20,750 nucleotides of DNA, taken from assembly GCF_902491285.1 (NCBI RefSeq), contig NZ_CABUHK010000089.1, positions 1-20,750 on the forward strand. Direction: 5' to 3'. The translations under genes were made by a program, and so were the position numbers. The stretch comes from an uncultured Bacteroides sp. (lineage in GTDB: Bacteria; Bacteroidota; Bacteroidia; Bacteroidales; Bacteroidaceae). Shown one piece after another: positions 3,823-16,948 of the stretch. Numbering within the stretch: the first letter of the stretch is position 1; each line of letters starts with the position of its first letter. The notes under the pieces were generated by a model, which was not told where the DNA came from, did no database searches, and was given only the letters and a program-made list of their open reading frames with translations.

Positions 3823-4647
3823 ATGTACACAGAATATCAGCCTTCTCATCTGCTTGCTCCCTATATTGATAATTATTGGGAATTTAAAGGCAATCCGGAA
3901 TATGGTATGCGCATCCATATCCTGCCGGATGGTTGCACCGATTTTATTTTTACGTTGGGGGAGGTGGCTACTGCTGTGGAAGAGGAAAGCCTGATTATGC
4001 AACCTTACCGTTCCTATTTTGTAGGGCCGATGACGAAGTATTCCGAACTTGTCACTTATGCTGAATCCATCCATATGTTTGGCGTTCGTTTTTTACCTTC
4101 CGGGTTATCTTGTTTCACCAACTTATCTCTGCATGAGTTTGTAAACAGCAGAATCAGTACCAATGAGATGAAAGCAGTTTTTGATGATACCTTTATTGAA
4201 AGATTAAGTGAACAAAAGTCTGTCGCAGATCGAATACGAGTAGTGGAGGAATATTTATTGATGTATTTGACCCGGCATTATCAGCCTGCCGATTCTCGTG
4301 TGGTTATGGCGGTGAATATGATTAATCATTCCGGAGGAAAGCGTTCAGTCCGCAGTCTGATGGATGAAGTCTGTTTGTGCCAGCGTCATTTTGAGCGAAA
4401 ATTCAAGCATTACACCGGCTTCACCCCCAAAGAATATAGCCGTATTGTCAAATTCAAAAATGCTGTAGAGTTGTTGAGAAATACAACATCTGTGAACTTG
4501 CTGACTACGGCAGTTGATGCGGGATATTATGATTTAGCGCATTTCTCGAAAGAAATTAAGTCAATGTCAGGCAATACACCTGCATCATTTCTTTCGCTTA
4601 CAGTTCCGGAAGATACAACGCTTACTTATGTTGAGTCACGAAAGTAG
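3823..4647 (+). CDS. AraC-family transcriptional regulator
   Basis: 274 residues. The N-terminal part (about 1-140, beginning MYTEYQPSHLLAPYIDNYWEF with ILPDGCTDFIF following) is the ligand- or partner-sensing domain seen in AraC proteins of the DUF6597 kind (family name recalled, not searched). The C-terminal part (about 155-262) is the double helix-turn-helix DNA-binding region, with SVRSLMDEVCLCQRHFERKF and a second helix pair ending in GYYDLAHFSKEIKSMSGNTPASF. No membrane segment or kinase domain is present. It has its own promoter and sits just upstream of the PNPOx-like gene, which it may control; a link to nrfA is also possible. The ligand is unknown. Confidence 0.9.
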   Translation: MYTEYQPSHLLAPYIDNYWEFKGNPEYGMRIHILPDGCTDFIFTLGEVATAVEEESLIMQPYRSYFVGPMTKYSELVTYAESIHMFGVRFLPSGLSCFTNLSLHEFVNSRISTNEMKAVFDDTFIERLSEQKSVADRIRVVEEYLLMYLTRHYQPADSRVVMAVNMINHSGGKRSVRSLMDEVCLCQRHFERKFKHYTGFTPKEYSRIVKFKNAVELLRNTTSVNLLTTAVDAGYYDLAHFSKEIKSMSGNTPASFLSLTVPEDTTLTYVESRK

Positions 4648-13847: not shown

Positions 13848-13993
13848 TGAAAACTGTTGAGTTATCACCTATGTGTCTTTGCTTTTCTTCGGTATTCTTA
13901 CAAAATAAGTCCCGTTCATTCATTTTTTACTGTTTTTTTGAGAAAACAGCAAAAAAGTTTGAGTTACGCAAAAAGGCTGCGCATCACTGCGCC

Positions 13994-14001
13994 TATCTTT
14001 G
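13994..14001 (+). promoter_or_regulatory. -7 promoter element for the structured RNA cluster
   Basis: TATCTTTG matches TAnnTTTG. The predicted start (near 14005-14008) falls on the first base of the RNA-1 closing stem. An inverted repeat GCGC-ATCACT-GCGC (13979-13992) lies directly upstream of the element and could be an operator. The -33 element is weak. Confidence 0.6.
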
Positions 14002-14006
14002 TCGAA

Positions 14007-14094
14007 GAAACAAGAAAACAGGTCAAGTACGGGTTACTTCAACACACTCTTTAAGGTAGAACATTACCAGTACGATTATCCGTTTTCCTGTTTC
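14007..14094 (+). ncRNA. Structured RNA 1 with GGUCAA-N7-UUACUUC motif
   Basis: A long closing stem: 14007-14022 pairs with 14079-14094, with 14 of 16 positions paired. Inside are the motif (14021-14040), a small hairpin GGTA-GAACAT-TACC (14055-14068) and CGATTATCC (14073-14081) on the 3' side. The start coincides with the predicted transcript start. There is no significant open reading frame. It would be released either by its own ends or by 5' processing of the tRNA-like RNA 2 that begins 6 nt later. Confidence 0.65.
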
Positions 14095-14099
14095 GTAAA

Positions 14100-14216
14100 G
14101 GGGCAGTAGCTCAGTGGGTAGAGCATCATCTTTAATCTTGAGATAATCTTGATAAAAGGTCAATTAAGATTTACTTCTATTCCGTGACTGTCACCGGTTC
14201 GACTCCGGTCTGCTCC
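14100..14216 (+). ncRNA. tRNA-mimic RNA 2 lacking an anticodon arm
   Basis: Clear tRNA parts: a 7-bp acceptor (14100-14106 with 14210-14216), a D arm (GCTC 14109-14112 with GAGC 14121-14124, loop AGTGGGTA), and a T arm (14193-14197 with 14205-14209, loop TTCGACT). The 17-nt anticodon arm and variable loop are replaced by 68 nt that hold the motif GGTCAA-N7-TTACTTC (14158-14177). GGTCA (14158-14162) can pair with TGACT (14185-14189), which lies 3 nt before the T stem. No anticodon loop can be drawn. It is followed by ACAA, not CCA. It is best read as a tRNA mimic comparable in idea to bacterial YrlA RNAs. Confidence 0.8.
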
Positions 14217-14230
14217 ACAAAGACAAATAT

Positions 14231-14336
14231 AGAGGTAGGACAGTAGCTTCGGAATTATCTGAAATGAGGTCAACCGGGGCTTACTTCTTAACGGTGGCTA
14301 TTGCTGGTTCGAATCCGGCCTGTTCTACCTCTTTTT
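14231..14336 (+). ncRNA. tRNA-mimic RNA 3 ending in a terminator-like stem
   Basis: The acceptor-like stem is 13 bp (14231-14243 with 14320-14332, one G-U pair) and runs into TTTTT, so it can act as a terminator. The T arm (14303-14307 with 14315-14319) has the loop TTCGAAT. The D arm is degenerate. The motif is at 14268-14287; GGTCA (14268-14272) pairs with TGGCT (14295-14299). As in RNA 2, there are 7 nt between the motif and the pairing strand and 3 nt from there to the T stem. Confidence 0.78.
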
Positions 14337-14342
14337 ATAAAC

Positions 14343-14413
14343 TAAGGTCAAGGAAGGCTTACTTCAAAAACTGCAGGAATGCACCATTGATTCACAGTCT
14401 CCCGATTACCTTA
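14343..14413 (+). promoter_or_regulatory. mRNA leader element 4 with the same motif
   Basis: GGTCAA-N7-TTACTTC at 14346-14365, closed by TAAGGT (14343-14348) with ACCTTA (14408-14413) and with CGATTA (14403-14408) on the 3' side as in RNA 1. It ends 17 nt before the ATG at 14431. No separate promoter is seen between RNA 3 and this gene, so it is probably in the mRNA leader and may serve feedback control by the encoded protein. Confidence 0.6.
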
Positions 14414-14430
14414 CTTAAAAAACACAACGT

Positions 14431-16677
14431 ATGAAAAAAGATTTGTTGAAAGTAACTATCAGGCAAAATGCAATTTATTTGCCAGTGATAGAAGGAACAG
14501 AAAAGCGCGAAGCATTGACTTCGACTACTGTAACATTGGTTGCTCAACTTCGAAAAGTGGGATATAGCTTATCCGAGGAGTTGCTGCATGCTGTCAATCA
14601 GTTGTATCCGGCGCAGCAGGTGGAGATTCTTCAGGTGATGAAGGAAGTATTGGGCGTAACGCTCAATTGGGCTCCATTGGTGAAAGGCTGGGATACACCT
14701 ACTGGAGAAACAGGATTAGACCATTTGATAACATGGATTGCCAACATCTTCAATAGCAAGAAAGGCGTGAAGCTGCCCTGCGGACACGTGATTCCCGATA
14801 ATACCTTCCCTTTGGAGCGATACAACGGCTGCCCGTTCTGCGGAACTCCGTTTGAAACGTCCGCTACGGAATACTTCGGACAGGGAAGCAAGCTGAAAGT
14901 CCTTGAACTTTGGCGGGAAGAGGATTTGAATGGTTTCTTCCGCGACCTGCTTGAATCGCGTACGGCTCTTGATGCCACACAAGTGGATAGCTTGAAGATT
15001 TTGCTTGGCGAACTTCCGTTGCCGGCAGTCGGAATCAAGATGAAAGAAACTTTGATGCTGGTGATAGATACATTGGTAGAGCAGGACAGGGCGCAGGAAG
15101 CGCAAATCTATTTCTCCACTCCGAACGATATATTGCGTTATCTGTGGTATAAGAAAACCGGATTCCTGCAAATCATCGAACCTAAGACCATCATCCGTAA
15201 GGCGGGTAGAAACAATAAGCATATAACTGCTGCTTTGGATAAAAGCCGTTCGGCTGCTCAGGCGAAGCGTGAGGAACTGAAGTTGAAATACACCCGCCGC
15301 GAATGTAAAATGGTAGCCCTTTGGCTGAATAACCTGGAGATGAACGCGGAGAAGGCTTGCGAAATCATGCATCCGAAAAGAGAGATGTGGGTACGTATGA
15401 TACGTGCGTTGCGTTTAGCGGAATATGCCCGTAAGCCGGGATTCGGGAATTTGAAGGAGTTGATGGATATATTCTACTGTCAGGCATATACGGTTTGGCA
15501 GGGAGAGGTGGACTGCTACCGTTTGAAAGCGGATGCTGCACAGACATTCGCCTTATTGAAGCAGCGACCGGGTATGTTCGCACGTTCCTTGTTTGCCAAT
15601 ATGCTTTGGTTCGGAGCGGAAGAGACATTGGCTGCATTCAAGGAAGTCGTTCATTTGTTGCCGGCTCGTCTGGTGGTTACTTTGGGCATGTATGCGGAGA
15701 ACTACTTTGAGCAAGGACATAAGAGAATGGTGAAACCTTTGGGCGGTAATGCTCATTTGATAGAACCTCACTACTTGGTGGGTCTTTATATGGAAGACCA
15801 GCTTAAAGCAATGGTGAAAGATGTGCAGGACTTGTGCAAGGAAGTCGTGGCTGCCCGTTTTGCCAATGCAGCGGCTGAGGGAGAGAACAAGAGCATATAT
15901 ATCGACCCTATGTTGTTCCATATCCCGTTGTCTATCGGTGACCGTAGCGAGACTATTCAGGATACTTCCTGTGCCTTGCAGGGAACACGTTTCCCGGTAG
16001 AAGGGGATAAGGTGCGCCTGTTCATGCAGTGGGGAAAAGGGCTTCCGGCACAGCATTTGGATATGGACTTGAGTTGTCACATCACTTTGCCGTCAACGAC
16101 GGAAGTTTGCTCTTATTTCAAATTGCAGGCTATCGGTGCCAAACATAGCGGAGATATCCGAAGCATCCCCGATAAGAAAGGTACTGCCGAGTATATTGAA
16201 CTGGATTTGAATGAACTGAACCGTGTAGGTGCGCAGTATGTGGTTTTCACTTGCAATGCGTATAGTAATGGTGCTATCTCTCCTAATTTGGTAGTCGGTT
16301 GGATGGACTCAGCTTATCCGATGAAGATATCAGAGAAGACCGGAGTGGCTTACGACCCTTCTTGCGTTCAGCATCAGGTACGTGTTTCCCAAAGTTTGCA
16401 AAAAGGACTTGTTTTCGGGGTATTGAAAGTGAAAGAAAGGGAAATCGTCTGGCTGGAAATACCTTTCGGCGGACAGACCATTCTTTCTTTGGATACACAA
16501 GCTGTCGAAAAGTACCTGGATAAACTGGATGCGAAAACAACCGTCGGCGAACTGTTGGCTGTCAAAGCACAGGCACAGGGATTGAAGTTGGTTGATGCAC
16601 CGGAAGCGGACGAAGTATATACCCGTGAATGGGCGTTGAATACTGCTGCTGTGACTAAGTTGCTGTTGGGGGATTAA
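14431..16677 (+). CDS. RING-like, helical and TerD-like domain protein (MXAN_6230/SCO0854-type)
   Basis: 748 residues, with no signal peptide or membrane helix. The zinc ligands C117, H119, C134, C137 (LPCGHVI ... YNGCPFCG) form a RING-like treble-clef knuckle. Residues about 225-480 are an all-helical region with TRRECKMVALWLNNLEM, LWVRMIRALRLAEYAR-like repeats and FALLKQRPGMFARSLFANML. Residues about 520-680 resemble TerD: GDKVRLFMQW, DMDLSCH, KHSGDIRS, then AEYIELDLNEL and VVFTCNAYS. This order matches the MXAN_6230/SCO0854 RING protein family as I remember it. The helical part recalls the TROVE domain of Ro60, but this is only a suggestion and there is no vWA MIDAS motif. Four RNA elements sharing one motif lie immediately upstream, so the protein is the likely RNA partner (inference). 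Start at 14431; no Shine-Dalgarno is seen. Confidence 0.8.
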   Translation: MKKDLLKVTIRQNAIYLPVIEGTEKREALTSTTVTLVAQLRKVGYSLSEELLHAVNQLYPAQQVEILQVMKEVLGVTLNWAPLVKGWDTPTGETGLDHLITWIANIFNSKKGVKLPCGHVIPDNTFPLERYNGCPFCGTPFETSATEYFGQGSKLKVLELWREEDLNGFFRDLLESRTALDATQVDSLKILLGELPLPAVGIKMKETLMLVIDTLVEQDRAQEAQIYFSTPNDILRYLWYKKTGFLQIIEPKTIIRKAGRNNKHITAALDKSRSAAQAKREELKLKYTRRECKMVALWLNNLEMNAEKACEIMHPKREMWVRMIRALRLAEYARKPGFGNLKELMDIFYCQAYTVWQGEVDCYRLKADAAQTFALLKQRPGMFARSLFANMLWFGAEETLAAFKEVVHLLPARLVVTLGMYAENYFEQGHKRMVKPLGGNAHLIEPHYLVGLYMEDQLKAMVKDVQDLCKEVVAARFANAAAEGENKSIYIDPMLFHIPLSIGDRSETIQDTSCALQGTRFPVEGDKVRLFMQWGKGLPAQHLDMDLSCHITLPSTTEVCSYFKLQAIGAKHSGDIRSIPDKKGTAEYIELDLNELNRVGAQYVVFTCNAYSNGAISPNLVVGWMDSAYPMKISEKTGVAYDPSCVQHQVRVSQSLQKGLVFGVLKVKEREIVWLEIPFGGQTILSLDTQAVEKYLDKLDAKTTVGELLAVKAQAQGLKLVDAPEADEVYTREWALNTAAVTKLLLGD

Positions 16678-16761: not shown

Positions 16762-16847
16762 CGTCTGACAGCTGTTGAACTTTCGTCTGACAACTGTTCT
16801 CTTTTCGTCTAACAACTGTCAGACGCAAAAGAAACAGTTGTCAGACG
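16762..16847 (+). repeat. Three 15-bp direct repeats at 22-bp spacing plus an inverted copy
   Basis: CGTCTGACAGCTGTT (16762-16776), CGTCTGACAACTGTT (16784-16798) and CGTCTAACAACTGTC (16806-16820) recur at exactly 22 bp. AACAGTTGTCAGACG (16833-16847) is the exact reverse complement of copy 2 and is followed by ATTATTTTT. In RNA any of the three copies could pair with the last one; the pair formed by copy 2 is a perfect 15-bp terminator-like hairpin. Copy 3 also forms its own hairpin CGTCT ... AGACG (16806-16825). Confidence 0.85.
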
Positions 16848-16948
16848 ATTATTTTTATACTAAACGGAGCGTAAAGCTTAGGGAAGGGAGAGGCAAATGT
16901 CAGCGAATAAGGTATTAAATGTATAAACAACTAATAAATGATATCCTT

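What the first reader, a model, noticed from the sequence alone, without database searches (positions are those of the whole stretch)
14007..14413. Four RNA elements with an exactly spaced GGUCAA-N7-UUACUUC motif, two of them tRNA mimics
GGTCAA and TTACTTC occur four times within 345 bp (14021, 14158, 14268, 14346), each time with exactly 7 variable bases between. The variable bases differ while the flanks are invariant, as expected for a protein-binding RNA motif. RNA 2 and RNA 3 have true T arms (TTCGACT and TTCGAAT loops) and acceptor stems but no anticodon arm. In both, GGUCA pairs with UGRCU at identical distances (7 nt after the motif, 3 nt before the T stem), with an A-U to G-U change that keeps the pairing. 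RNA 1 and element 4 share a 3' CGAUUAYC strand. This resembles bacterial Y RNAs (YrlA), which fuse a Ro-binding stem to a tRNA-like module, but the partner gene is not a recognisable Rsr. It may be an undescribed RNA family.
Basis: partly seen in the sequence, partly recalled or inferred. Interest (0 to 1): 0.94.

Follow-up and report, generated by a model that had tools for sequence, protein, structure and literature searches.

The report
tRNA-mimic RNAs of an RNA-repair regulon
Four predicted small RNAs, two of them built on a tRNA frame, sit in front of an uncharacterised Bacteroides gene; their paired motif recurs beside the same gene across the Bacteroidota and, in a related form, beside distant homologues in other bacteria and large phages, and the RNAs likely work with that protein in the repair of damaged tRNA.

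Summary
GGUCAA-N7-UUACUUC stands at 14021, 14158, 14268 and 14346, and recurs upstream of the same gene in 79 of 80 related loci. In 296 evenly drawn Bacteroidota genomes, all 7 with the full-length gene carry the cluster; none of the other 289 does. In the tRNA-like RNAs this strand lies upstream: the module is circularly permuted into the anticodon-arm position. The partner is a RING/helical-repeat/TerD protein, not Ro60. Similar UU(A/C)CUUC units flank 14 of 16 distant homologues. A palindrome precedes 58 of 76 arrays and 20 of 23 linked RtcB genes and, elsewhere, RlaP, RNA-ligase, Ro60/TROVE and WYL genes. Best reading: partner RNAs of an RNA-repair ribonucleoprotein, analogous to but distinct from Ro60-Y RNA. 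Transcription, binding and repair are untested. A 2016 review that I could not read may mention the tRNA-like RNA.

The parts
13965..13983 (.). Palindromic operator TACGCA-N7-TGCGCA, 56 nt before the first GGUCAA
   Evidence: T[AG]CGCA-N7-TGCGYA lies within 400 nt upstream of the first unit in 58 of 76 arrays (window included) and between 118 nt upstream and 26 nt inside the start of the match for 20 of 23 linked RtcB genes
13994..14001 (+). TATCTTTG, resembles a Bacteroides -7 box (TAnnTTTG, recalled); would start transcription near RNA 1
   Evidence: Position; promoter reading is inference
14007..14094 (+). RNA 1, direct module: GGUCAA 14021-14026, N7 14027-14033, UUACUUC 14034-14040, N7' 14067-14073 (6 of 7 pairs), GAUUAUC 14074-14080, terminal stem 14007-14022/14080-14094
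   Evidence: (62.2 bits to model R1, which was built with it)
14100..14217 (+). RNA 2, tRNA-like: acceptor 14100-14106/14210-14216, D arm from 14107, permuted module N7' 14135-14141 (7 of 7 pairs), GAUAAUC 14142-14148, GGUCAA 14158-14163, N7 14164-14170, UUACUUC 14171-14177, T arm 14193-14209
14231..14332 (+). RNA 3, tRNA-like with 13-bp terminal stem and no recognisable D arm: N7' 14246-14252 (7 of 7 pairs), AAUUAUC 14253-14259, GGUCAA 14268-14273, N7 14274-14280, UUACUUC 14281-14287, T arm 14303-14319
14338..14418 (+). RNA 4, direct module next to the start codon: GGUCAA 14346-14351, N7 14352-14358, UUACUUC 14359-14365, N7' 14397-14403 (6 of 7 pairs), GAUUACC 14404-14410
   Evidence: (55.8 bits; model built with it)
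14431..16677 (+). Partner gene, 748 aa: zinc RING-like region around C117-C137, helical repeats 163-480, C-terminal TerD fold about 520-695

Best explanation
The locus encodes a family of predicted partner RNAs, two of the four built as tRNA mimics, that likely bind the RING/helical-repeat/TerD protein encoded just downstream and likely act with it as a tRNA-damage-response or repair ribonucleoprotein, working like Ro60 with its Y RNAs but made from different parts. Shown by the calls: the four units share one two-strand motif, a helix ending in GGU:AYC, a 3x4 internal loop CAA/NAUU, a 7-bp helix that covaries across relatives, and UUACUUC after it. The module occurs in direct order (RNA 1, 4) or circularly permuted inside a tRNA frame (RNA 2, 3). 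The cluster co-occurs with the gene, and the array shares an operator sequence with RtcB and other RNA-repair genes. Inferred: transcription from one promoter at the operator, processing of the tRNA-like units by tRNA enzymes, binding of the constant loop residues by the protein, induction through a WYL regulator when RNA is damaged, and a role in holding, recognising or delivering damaged tRNA to ligases. The unit next to the start codon could also let the protein regulate itself.
For: Linkage: units in 79 of 80 loci (the miss, L058, has 40 nt upstream); 7 of 7 gene-bearing against 0 of 289 other genomes have the cluster. RNA, not DNA or protein: partner strand 7/7 paired in 166 of 315 units against 9.7 with shuffled N7; covariation score 0.627 against 0.198 shuffled, 0 of 500, slid controls at most 0.258 (units preselected for pairing). 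tRNA frame: D-like arm and T loop in 69 of 78 permuted units, and T stem of at least 4 plus acceptor of at least 6 pairs in 50, with 16 distinct acceptor pairs. Cross-phylum: in 16 distant loci 38 motif matches flank the gene on its strand, against 7 on the other strand there and 16 (+) and 28 (-) in the other 167 kb. The Bacteroidota model finds units directly after the Rhodococcus phage Weasels2 homologue at E 5.5e-5 and 0.0055. Repair: RtcB in 24, RlaP in 8, WYL in 37 of 81 loci. Operator before 58 of 76 arrays and 20 of 23 RtcB genes. In 9 of 12 further operator regions RtcB, RlaP, T4-type RNA ligase, TROVE or WYL lies beside it. The Variovorax homologue lies 1.3 kb from a divergent rtcR. 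Phage homologues sit among tRNAs, with a tRNA nucleotidyltransferase next or RtcB 3 kb on.
Against: No transcript, binding or phenotype data. The window itself shows no RtcB, RlaP or WYL gene. In the three named Bacteroides genomes the operator occurs only at arrays; the fourth, a MAG, has two further sites that I did not examine. So for Bacteroides the repair link rests on one genome with the operator before RtcB (L173) and on relatives. Model R1 found nothing in 10 of 11 phage and plasmid records. Two of 16 distant loci (L160, L171) show no unit and L170 only a poor one. In 14 of 34 distant units the own partner strand does not beat 95% of foreign strands. RNA 3 of the window fails the D-arm test. 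The helical region of the protein gives only middling matches to common helical repeats.
Confidence: 0.62

Rival explanations
1. Decoys: the tRNA-like RNAs are bait for anticodon nucleases or other tRNA-attacking enzymes. The protein only stabilises or counts them, and the real tRNAs found beside some arrays are replacements.
For: The frame keeps acceptor and T arm. Clusters of real tRNAs lie just upstream of arrays in Aquimarina (L012 6, L017 11), a Flavobacteriaceae MAG (L024, 11) and Emticicia (L050, 7) (49 of 80 loci scanned). Phage homologues sit in tRNA islands. Hughes et al. [quoted passage not shown]
Against: Without an anticodon arm it is a poor bait for anticodon nucleases. 174 of 252 units assigned a pairing are in the direct form, and some arrays, such as L076, show no tRNA match at Rfam's cut-off.
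Confidence: 0.18
2. Cis-acting leader: the units are 5' regulatory elements through which the RING-TerD protein, or a tRNA-processing enzyme, controls its own mRNA.
For: In 68 of 80 arrays the last unit lies within 120 nt of the first aligned codon, and the clustered units are on the coding strand.
Against: In Variovorax, Vibrio, Niallia, Weasels2 and the 485-kb phage the units lie 3' of the gene. Weasels2 has a further match 64 kb away. A leader needs neither several copies nor a full tRNA frame.
Confidence: 0.12
3. Degenerate tRNA genes with inserted repeats, without function.
For: RNA 2 passes Rfam's tRNA cut-off; L003 holds a truncated tRNA-like remnant.
Against: Pairing with double changes, invariant loop residues and linkage to the gene.
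Confidence: 0.01

Closest known systems
Ro60/Rsr with Y RNAs (YrlA), rsr-yrlBA-rtcBA operon
   Same: Dedicated RNAs beside a partner gene, a tRNA-like module fused to a protein-binding-type stem, RtcB/RtcR linkage; two TROVE genes found here carry the same operator
   Different: Partner has no TROVE domain; no YrlA match in the window; the motif GGUCAA/UUACUUC/NAUUAYC is permuted into the tRNA; no R1 unit in the 5-kb and 3.6-kb regions around the two TROVE genes
RtcB/RlaP RNA-repair systems and the 'novel tRNA-like molecule' paired with SPFH/Band-7 (Burroughs and Aravind 2016, recalled from its abstract, not readable here)
   Same: RtcB, RlaP, WYL, and Band_7 among neighbours (Band_7 2 of 110); a tRNA-like RNA is said to exist
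   Different: Their RNA is, as I recall it, assigned to Band-7, not to a RING-TerD protein; whether it is the same RNA could not be checked
MXAN_6230/SCO0854 family RING protein (NF041916), Prok-RING_4
   Same: The only NCBIfam family matched; similarity over the helical/TerD core (protein 354-682)
   Different: 137.7 bits against a cut-off of 600; paper searches for these names found no account of an RNA partner
tRNA (RF00005)
   Same: Acceptor, T arm and, in RNA 2, D arm
   Different: No anticodon arm; the module stands in its place

Membership tests
tRNA RF00005 | Score above Rfam gathering cut-off 29 | tested here: inconclusive
   RNA 2 48.4 (met), RNA 3 23.3 (not met)
tRNA RF00005 | Anticodon arm / callable anticodon | tested here: not met
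   ARAGORN: 0 tRNAs in the window; place taken by the module
Bacterial Y RNA / YrlA | Match to an Rfam Y-RNA family | tested here: not met
   None up to E 10 in the window
Bacterial Y RNA / YrlA | Encoded with a TROVE (Rsr) protein | tested here: not met
   Partner matches only Prok-RING_4 weakly; TROVE genes lie elsewhere in two genomes
Bacterial Y RNA / YrlA | Binds Ro60 and tethers PNPase | not testable with these tools
   Needs biochemistry
MXAN_6230/SCO0854 RING family NF041916 | Score above 600 bits | tested here: not met
   137.7 bits
Prok-RING_4 PF14447 | Score above 27 bits | tested here: not met
   24.9 bits; C117, H119, C134 and C137 invariant in 46 aligned sequences
TerD fold | Structural match of the C-terminal domain | tested here: met
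RNA-repair regulon | Shares a rare operator sequence with RtcB/RlaP/ligase genes | tested here: met
RNA-repair regulon | Induced by RNA damage | not testable with these tools
   Needs expression data

The most novel reading that the evidence does not exclude
A third, previously unnamed class of RNA-repair ribonucleoprotein beside Ro60-Y RNA. An ancient RNA motif, an outer helix, an internal loop, a variable helix and then UU(A/C)CUUC, partners a helical-repeat/TerD protein across bacterial phyla and large phages. It has repeatedly been circularly permuted into tRNA frames. It is switched on together with RtcB, RlaP, RNA ligase and Ro60 through one operator when tRNAs are cut, and phages carry it to keep translation going under host tRNA attack.
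Probability: 0.5. Interest if true: 0.95.

Novelty: new variant of a known kind. Interest (0 to 1): 0.9.

Why it matters
RNA-repair systems are widespread but how they find and handle broken tRNA is open. This gives a concrete RNA-protein pair, an RNA motif with a covariation-based model, a DNA operator that defines a candidate regulon, and phage versions, so the role of non-coding RNAs in RNA repair and in the phage-host fight over tRNA becomes directly testable. It also supplies an RNA family that Rfam 15 does not hold and whose tRNA-like members score partly as tRNA, and a proposed RNA partner for a widespread RING/TerD protein family.

Tried and rejected
Y-RNA membership: no Rfam match in the window, no TROVE domain in the partner. 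Known defence protein: no PADLOC match. PDB sequence search of the partner: only chance-level matches, E 0.15 or more. Foldseek of the whole model: nothing at or below E 0.001; Ro60 was not among the rows listed by VIA-align, which excludes nothing. Viral-contig scans with three protein queries gave no locus. Model R1 on the 12 operator regions found no further unit, and among 11 phage/plasmid records matched only Weasels2. Rfam microRNA and SpF22 matches in the window are below their cut-offs. Papers: eight answered searches showed no description of these RNAs in the listings and passages that I saw. Burroughs and Aravind 2016 is not held, so prior mention of the tRNA-like RNA cannot be excluded.

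Selection effects: units in alignment A3 were chosen for at least 6 of 7 N7 pairs and for a tail NAT[TA]A[CT]C, so the N7 helix is inflated and the constancy of GGU:AYC is partly by construction; one search uses all 315 units (up to one mismatch in the motif) with its own shuffle, though it too requires the tail. The permuted units were preselected in the same way. A3 used 68 of 129 non-redundant direct units (of 174). The pattern was settled after I had looked at some of the same loci (L154, L156 and L163), so its enrichment is partly post hoc; L155 (Bacteroidota), L164 (near copy of L158, with two units) and L165 (gene ends unclear, TTCCTTC on both strands) were left out of it. The 34 units are the 38 minus four that I judged off-target before the count. 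The neighbour count used 110 of 125 listed ORFs from 33 of 80 loci. The RtcB count leaves out L073 (a partial match at the locus edge). Many RtcB and WYL cases are Flavobacterium and not independent. The 12 operator regions (13 sites) were picked by me from about 25 off-array sites (my own count of that list) before seeing their genes; one site (L181) is inside an ORF that I did not scan. Alignment A4 was made but not counted. My script read only one strand and so missed arrays in five minus-strand loci; one search gives the right places.

Full report
OBSERVATION. Four exact copies of GGTCAA-N7-TTACTTC lie at 14021, 14158, 14268 and 14346 on the + strand and none on the other strand of the window. 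Chance would give about 6e-6 in 407 nt. ARAGORN finds no tRNA in the window. Rfam's tRNA model matches 14100-14217 (48.4 bits, cut-off 29) with a long insert, and 14237-14327 at 23.3, below the cut-off; no other family matches the region up to E 10.

LINKAGE. A profile of the downstream protein gave 80 loci, titled as Bacteroidota groups and one as Chlorobi (204 candidates, 80 kept). With up to two mismatches the motif stands upstream of the gene in 79 of 80; the exception, L058, has 40 nt upstream. In 20 whole genomes with the gene the exact pattern occurs 54 times: 50 fit the arrays by place and letters, two lie in a second cluster of one genome that I did not examine, two are isolated. The reversed pattern occurs 7 times. 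In 296 genomes drawn evenly from the phylum, 12 match family NF041916, of which 7 have the full-length gene and 5 only TerD-sized frames. The 7 have three to six exact copies next to it. Of the other 289, 24 have one or two isolated matches and the rest none; the reversed control gives isolated matches too. So gene and array go together, and the system is patchy (about 2% of genomes).

STRUCTURE. The variable N7 pairs with N7', which is followed at once by NAUUAYC. In 315 units the best partner is 7/7 paired in 166 and 6/7 in 90, against 9.7 and 45.6 with shuffled N7; in 252 of these 256 the partner ends exactly at the tail. On 68 direct units (A3) the N7 helix is paired in 96% of cells, and its seven pairs all show double changes, with 2-6 pair types each; an A just before N7', which was not selected for, is invariant. 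Whole structure: covariation 0.627, shuffled 0.198, slid at most 0.258. These units were preselected for pairing and for the tail, so one search is the fairer test. In 52 short-loop permuted units (30 distinct strand pairs) 94% of N7 cells pair, against 75% with mismatched partners. Here the order is N7'-NAUUAYC-loop-GGUCAA-N7-UUACUUC: the same two strands, circularly permuted. Of 78 permuted units, 69 have a D-like arm and T loop, and 50 have a T stem of at least 4 and an acceptor of at least 6 pairs, with 16 acceptor combinations. The next base is A in 45 of these 50, and at most one encodes CCA. RNA 3 of the window is among the nine without a D-like arm.

BEYOND BACTEROIDOTA. tblastn found homologues in Variovorax, Vibrio, Niallia, Streptomyces and Deinococcus plasmids and in phages of Rhodobacter, Ruegeria, Rhodococcus, Xanthomonas, Lactobacillus, Mycolicibacterium and Salicola. 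Around 16 such genes, [AT][AT][AC]CTTCT occurs 38 times on the gene strand within 1,000 nt upstream or 700 nt downstream, 7 times on the other strand there, and 16 (+) and 28 (-) times in the remaining 167 kb; 14 of 16 loci have at least one, L160 and L171 none. The pattern was settled after looking at three of these loci. Many of the sequences show GGCYAU-N8-UUCCUUCUA at fixed spacing, and duplex folding often repeats an outer helix, an internal loop of 3x4 or similar size and a 5-9-bp helix; 20 of 34 beat 95% of foreign partners. The Bacteroidota-only model R1 finds two units right behind the Weasels2 homologue (E 5.5e-5, 0.0055) and a third match 64 kb away. It finds none in ten other records, so most of the cross-phylum claim rests on the motif statistics, not on the model. 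In the two phages RcXuper (L163) and RpAliso (L166) some units run into a T arm, with CCA after the acceptor in RpAliso.

REPAIR LINK. Among 110 flanking proteins Pfam finds WYL 10, RtcB 7, RlaP 7, Band_7 2. By tblastn over 81 loci: RtcB 24, RlaP 8, WYL 37, any of these 44; the window has none. A palindrome TACGCA-N7-TGCGYA stands 56 nt before the first unit in the window and in five further Bacteroides loci (L001, L002, L003, L015, L062); the exact form lies within 400 nt of the first unit in 36 of 80 arrays. With T[AG] allowed it precedes 58 of 76 arrays and 20 of 23 linked RtcB genes. It is rare: up to 4 per strand in each of 19 genomes, reversed control 0-1. Twelve further operator regions were fetched. 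The gene beside the operator is RtcB (B. cellulosilyticus, L173), RlaP (L176), T4-type RNA ligase (L180, L182), TROVE (L175, L178) or WYL (L177, L179, L183) in nine; two have no Pfam match (L174, L184), and in one the site is inside an ORF that I did not scan (L181). In three named Bacteroides genomes the operator occurs only at arrays; a fourth, a MAG, has two more sites that I did not examine. In Variovorax the homologue lies 1.3 kb from rtcR on the other strand, with three short genes between. RpAliso has a tRNA nucleotidyltransferase next door and Weasels2 an RtcB 3 kb on.

MECHANISM. Shown: linkage, RNA covariation, tRNA frame, shared operator sequence. Inferred: one transcript from the operator, processing of tRNA-like units, binding of the constant loops by the protein, and a scaffold or sensor role in RNA repair under WYL control. 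The decoy and cis-leader rivals remain possible and are not exclusive.

KNOWN OR NEW. No Rfam family covers the units in the window, 14 Bacteroidota loci, four distant loci or seven more, beyond tRNA and tmRNA-type matches; one FopS sRNA match in L009 lies 3 kb from its array. Paper searches found no account of them (listings and starts of abstracts; passages read in PMC7790460, PMC9650030, PMC7824862, PMC6514570, PMC7159879, PMC4012209). From recall only, the abstract of Burroughs and Aravind 2016 names a novel tRNA-like molecule as partner of SPFH/Band-7 repair proteins. That paper is not held, and it is the main doubt about priority. Hence 'new variant of a known kind': it likely works like Ro60-Y RNA but fails the membership tests.

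Noticed in passing
window 16776-16855: Long near-perfect inverted repeat (CGTCTGACAACTGTT...) about 100 nt after the RING-TerD gene; Rfam microRNA matches to it are below cut-off. Perhaps a terminator or a mobile repeat.
   Followed up: no
L012 2451-3286, L017 2071-3317, L024 1775-3043, L050 2903-3632: Clusters of 6, 11, 11 and 7 real tRNA genes directly upstream of the array, like phage tRNA islands.
   Followed up: partly
record NC_041887.1 21164-21230 (-), genome of L167: Third R1 match in Rhodococcus phage Weasels2, 64 kb from the gene: a possible unit away from its gene.
   Followed up: no
L156 710-1990: Fecal 'Bacteriophage sp.' contig with tRNA-Met, tmRNA, tRNA-Trp, tRNA-Glu, tRNA-Met, then four TTCCTTC units and the gene; phage RcXuper (L163) likewise has tRNAs, a tmRNA-type match and units.
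   Followed up: partly
L166 1101-1222: RpAliso 'tRNA-Gln' is 122 nt with two T-arm-like hairpins; perhaps a tRNA-like or nested RNA annotated as a tRNA.
   Followed up: partly
L163 1642-1772: tRNA match (31.3 bits, cut-off 29) with a large insert in phage RcXuper.
   Followed up: partly
L003 about 3875-3916: Truncated tRNA-like unit: 5' half (AACAGTAGCTCAGTGGGTAGAGCA) left without motif or T arm.
   Followed up: no
L008 373-1319; L188 and L190 (Bacteroides xylanisolvens XB1A): Duplicated arrays: two tandem sets in L008, and two arrays 8.5 kb apart, each with its own operator, in XB1A.
   Followed up: partly
L174, L184: Operator beside ORFs without Pfam match: candidate new members of the repair regulon.
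   Followed up: no
L012 3704 and 3787; also L011, L050: One module with its own T-arm-like hairpin appears nested inside another within a single tRNA-like RNA.
   Followed up: no
Deinobacterium chartae (control genome): The only one of 14 control genomes with a match to NF041916; its surroundings were not looked at.
   Followed up: no
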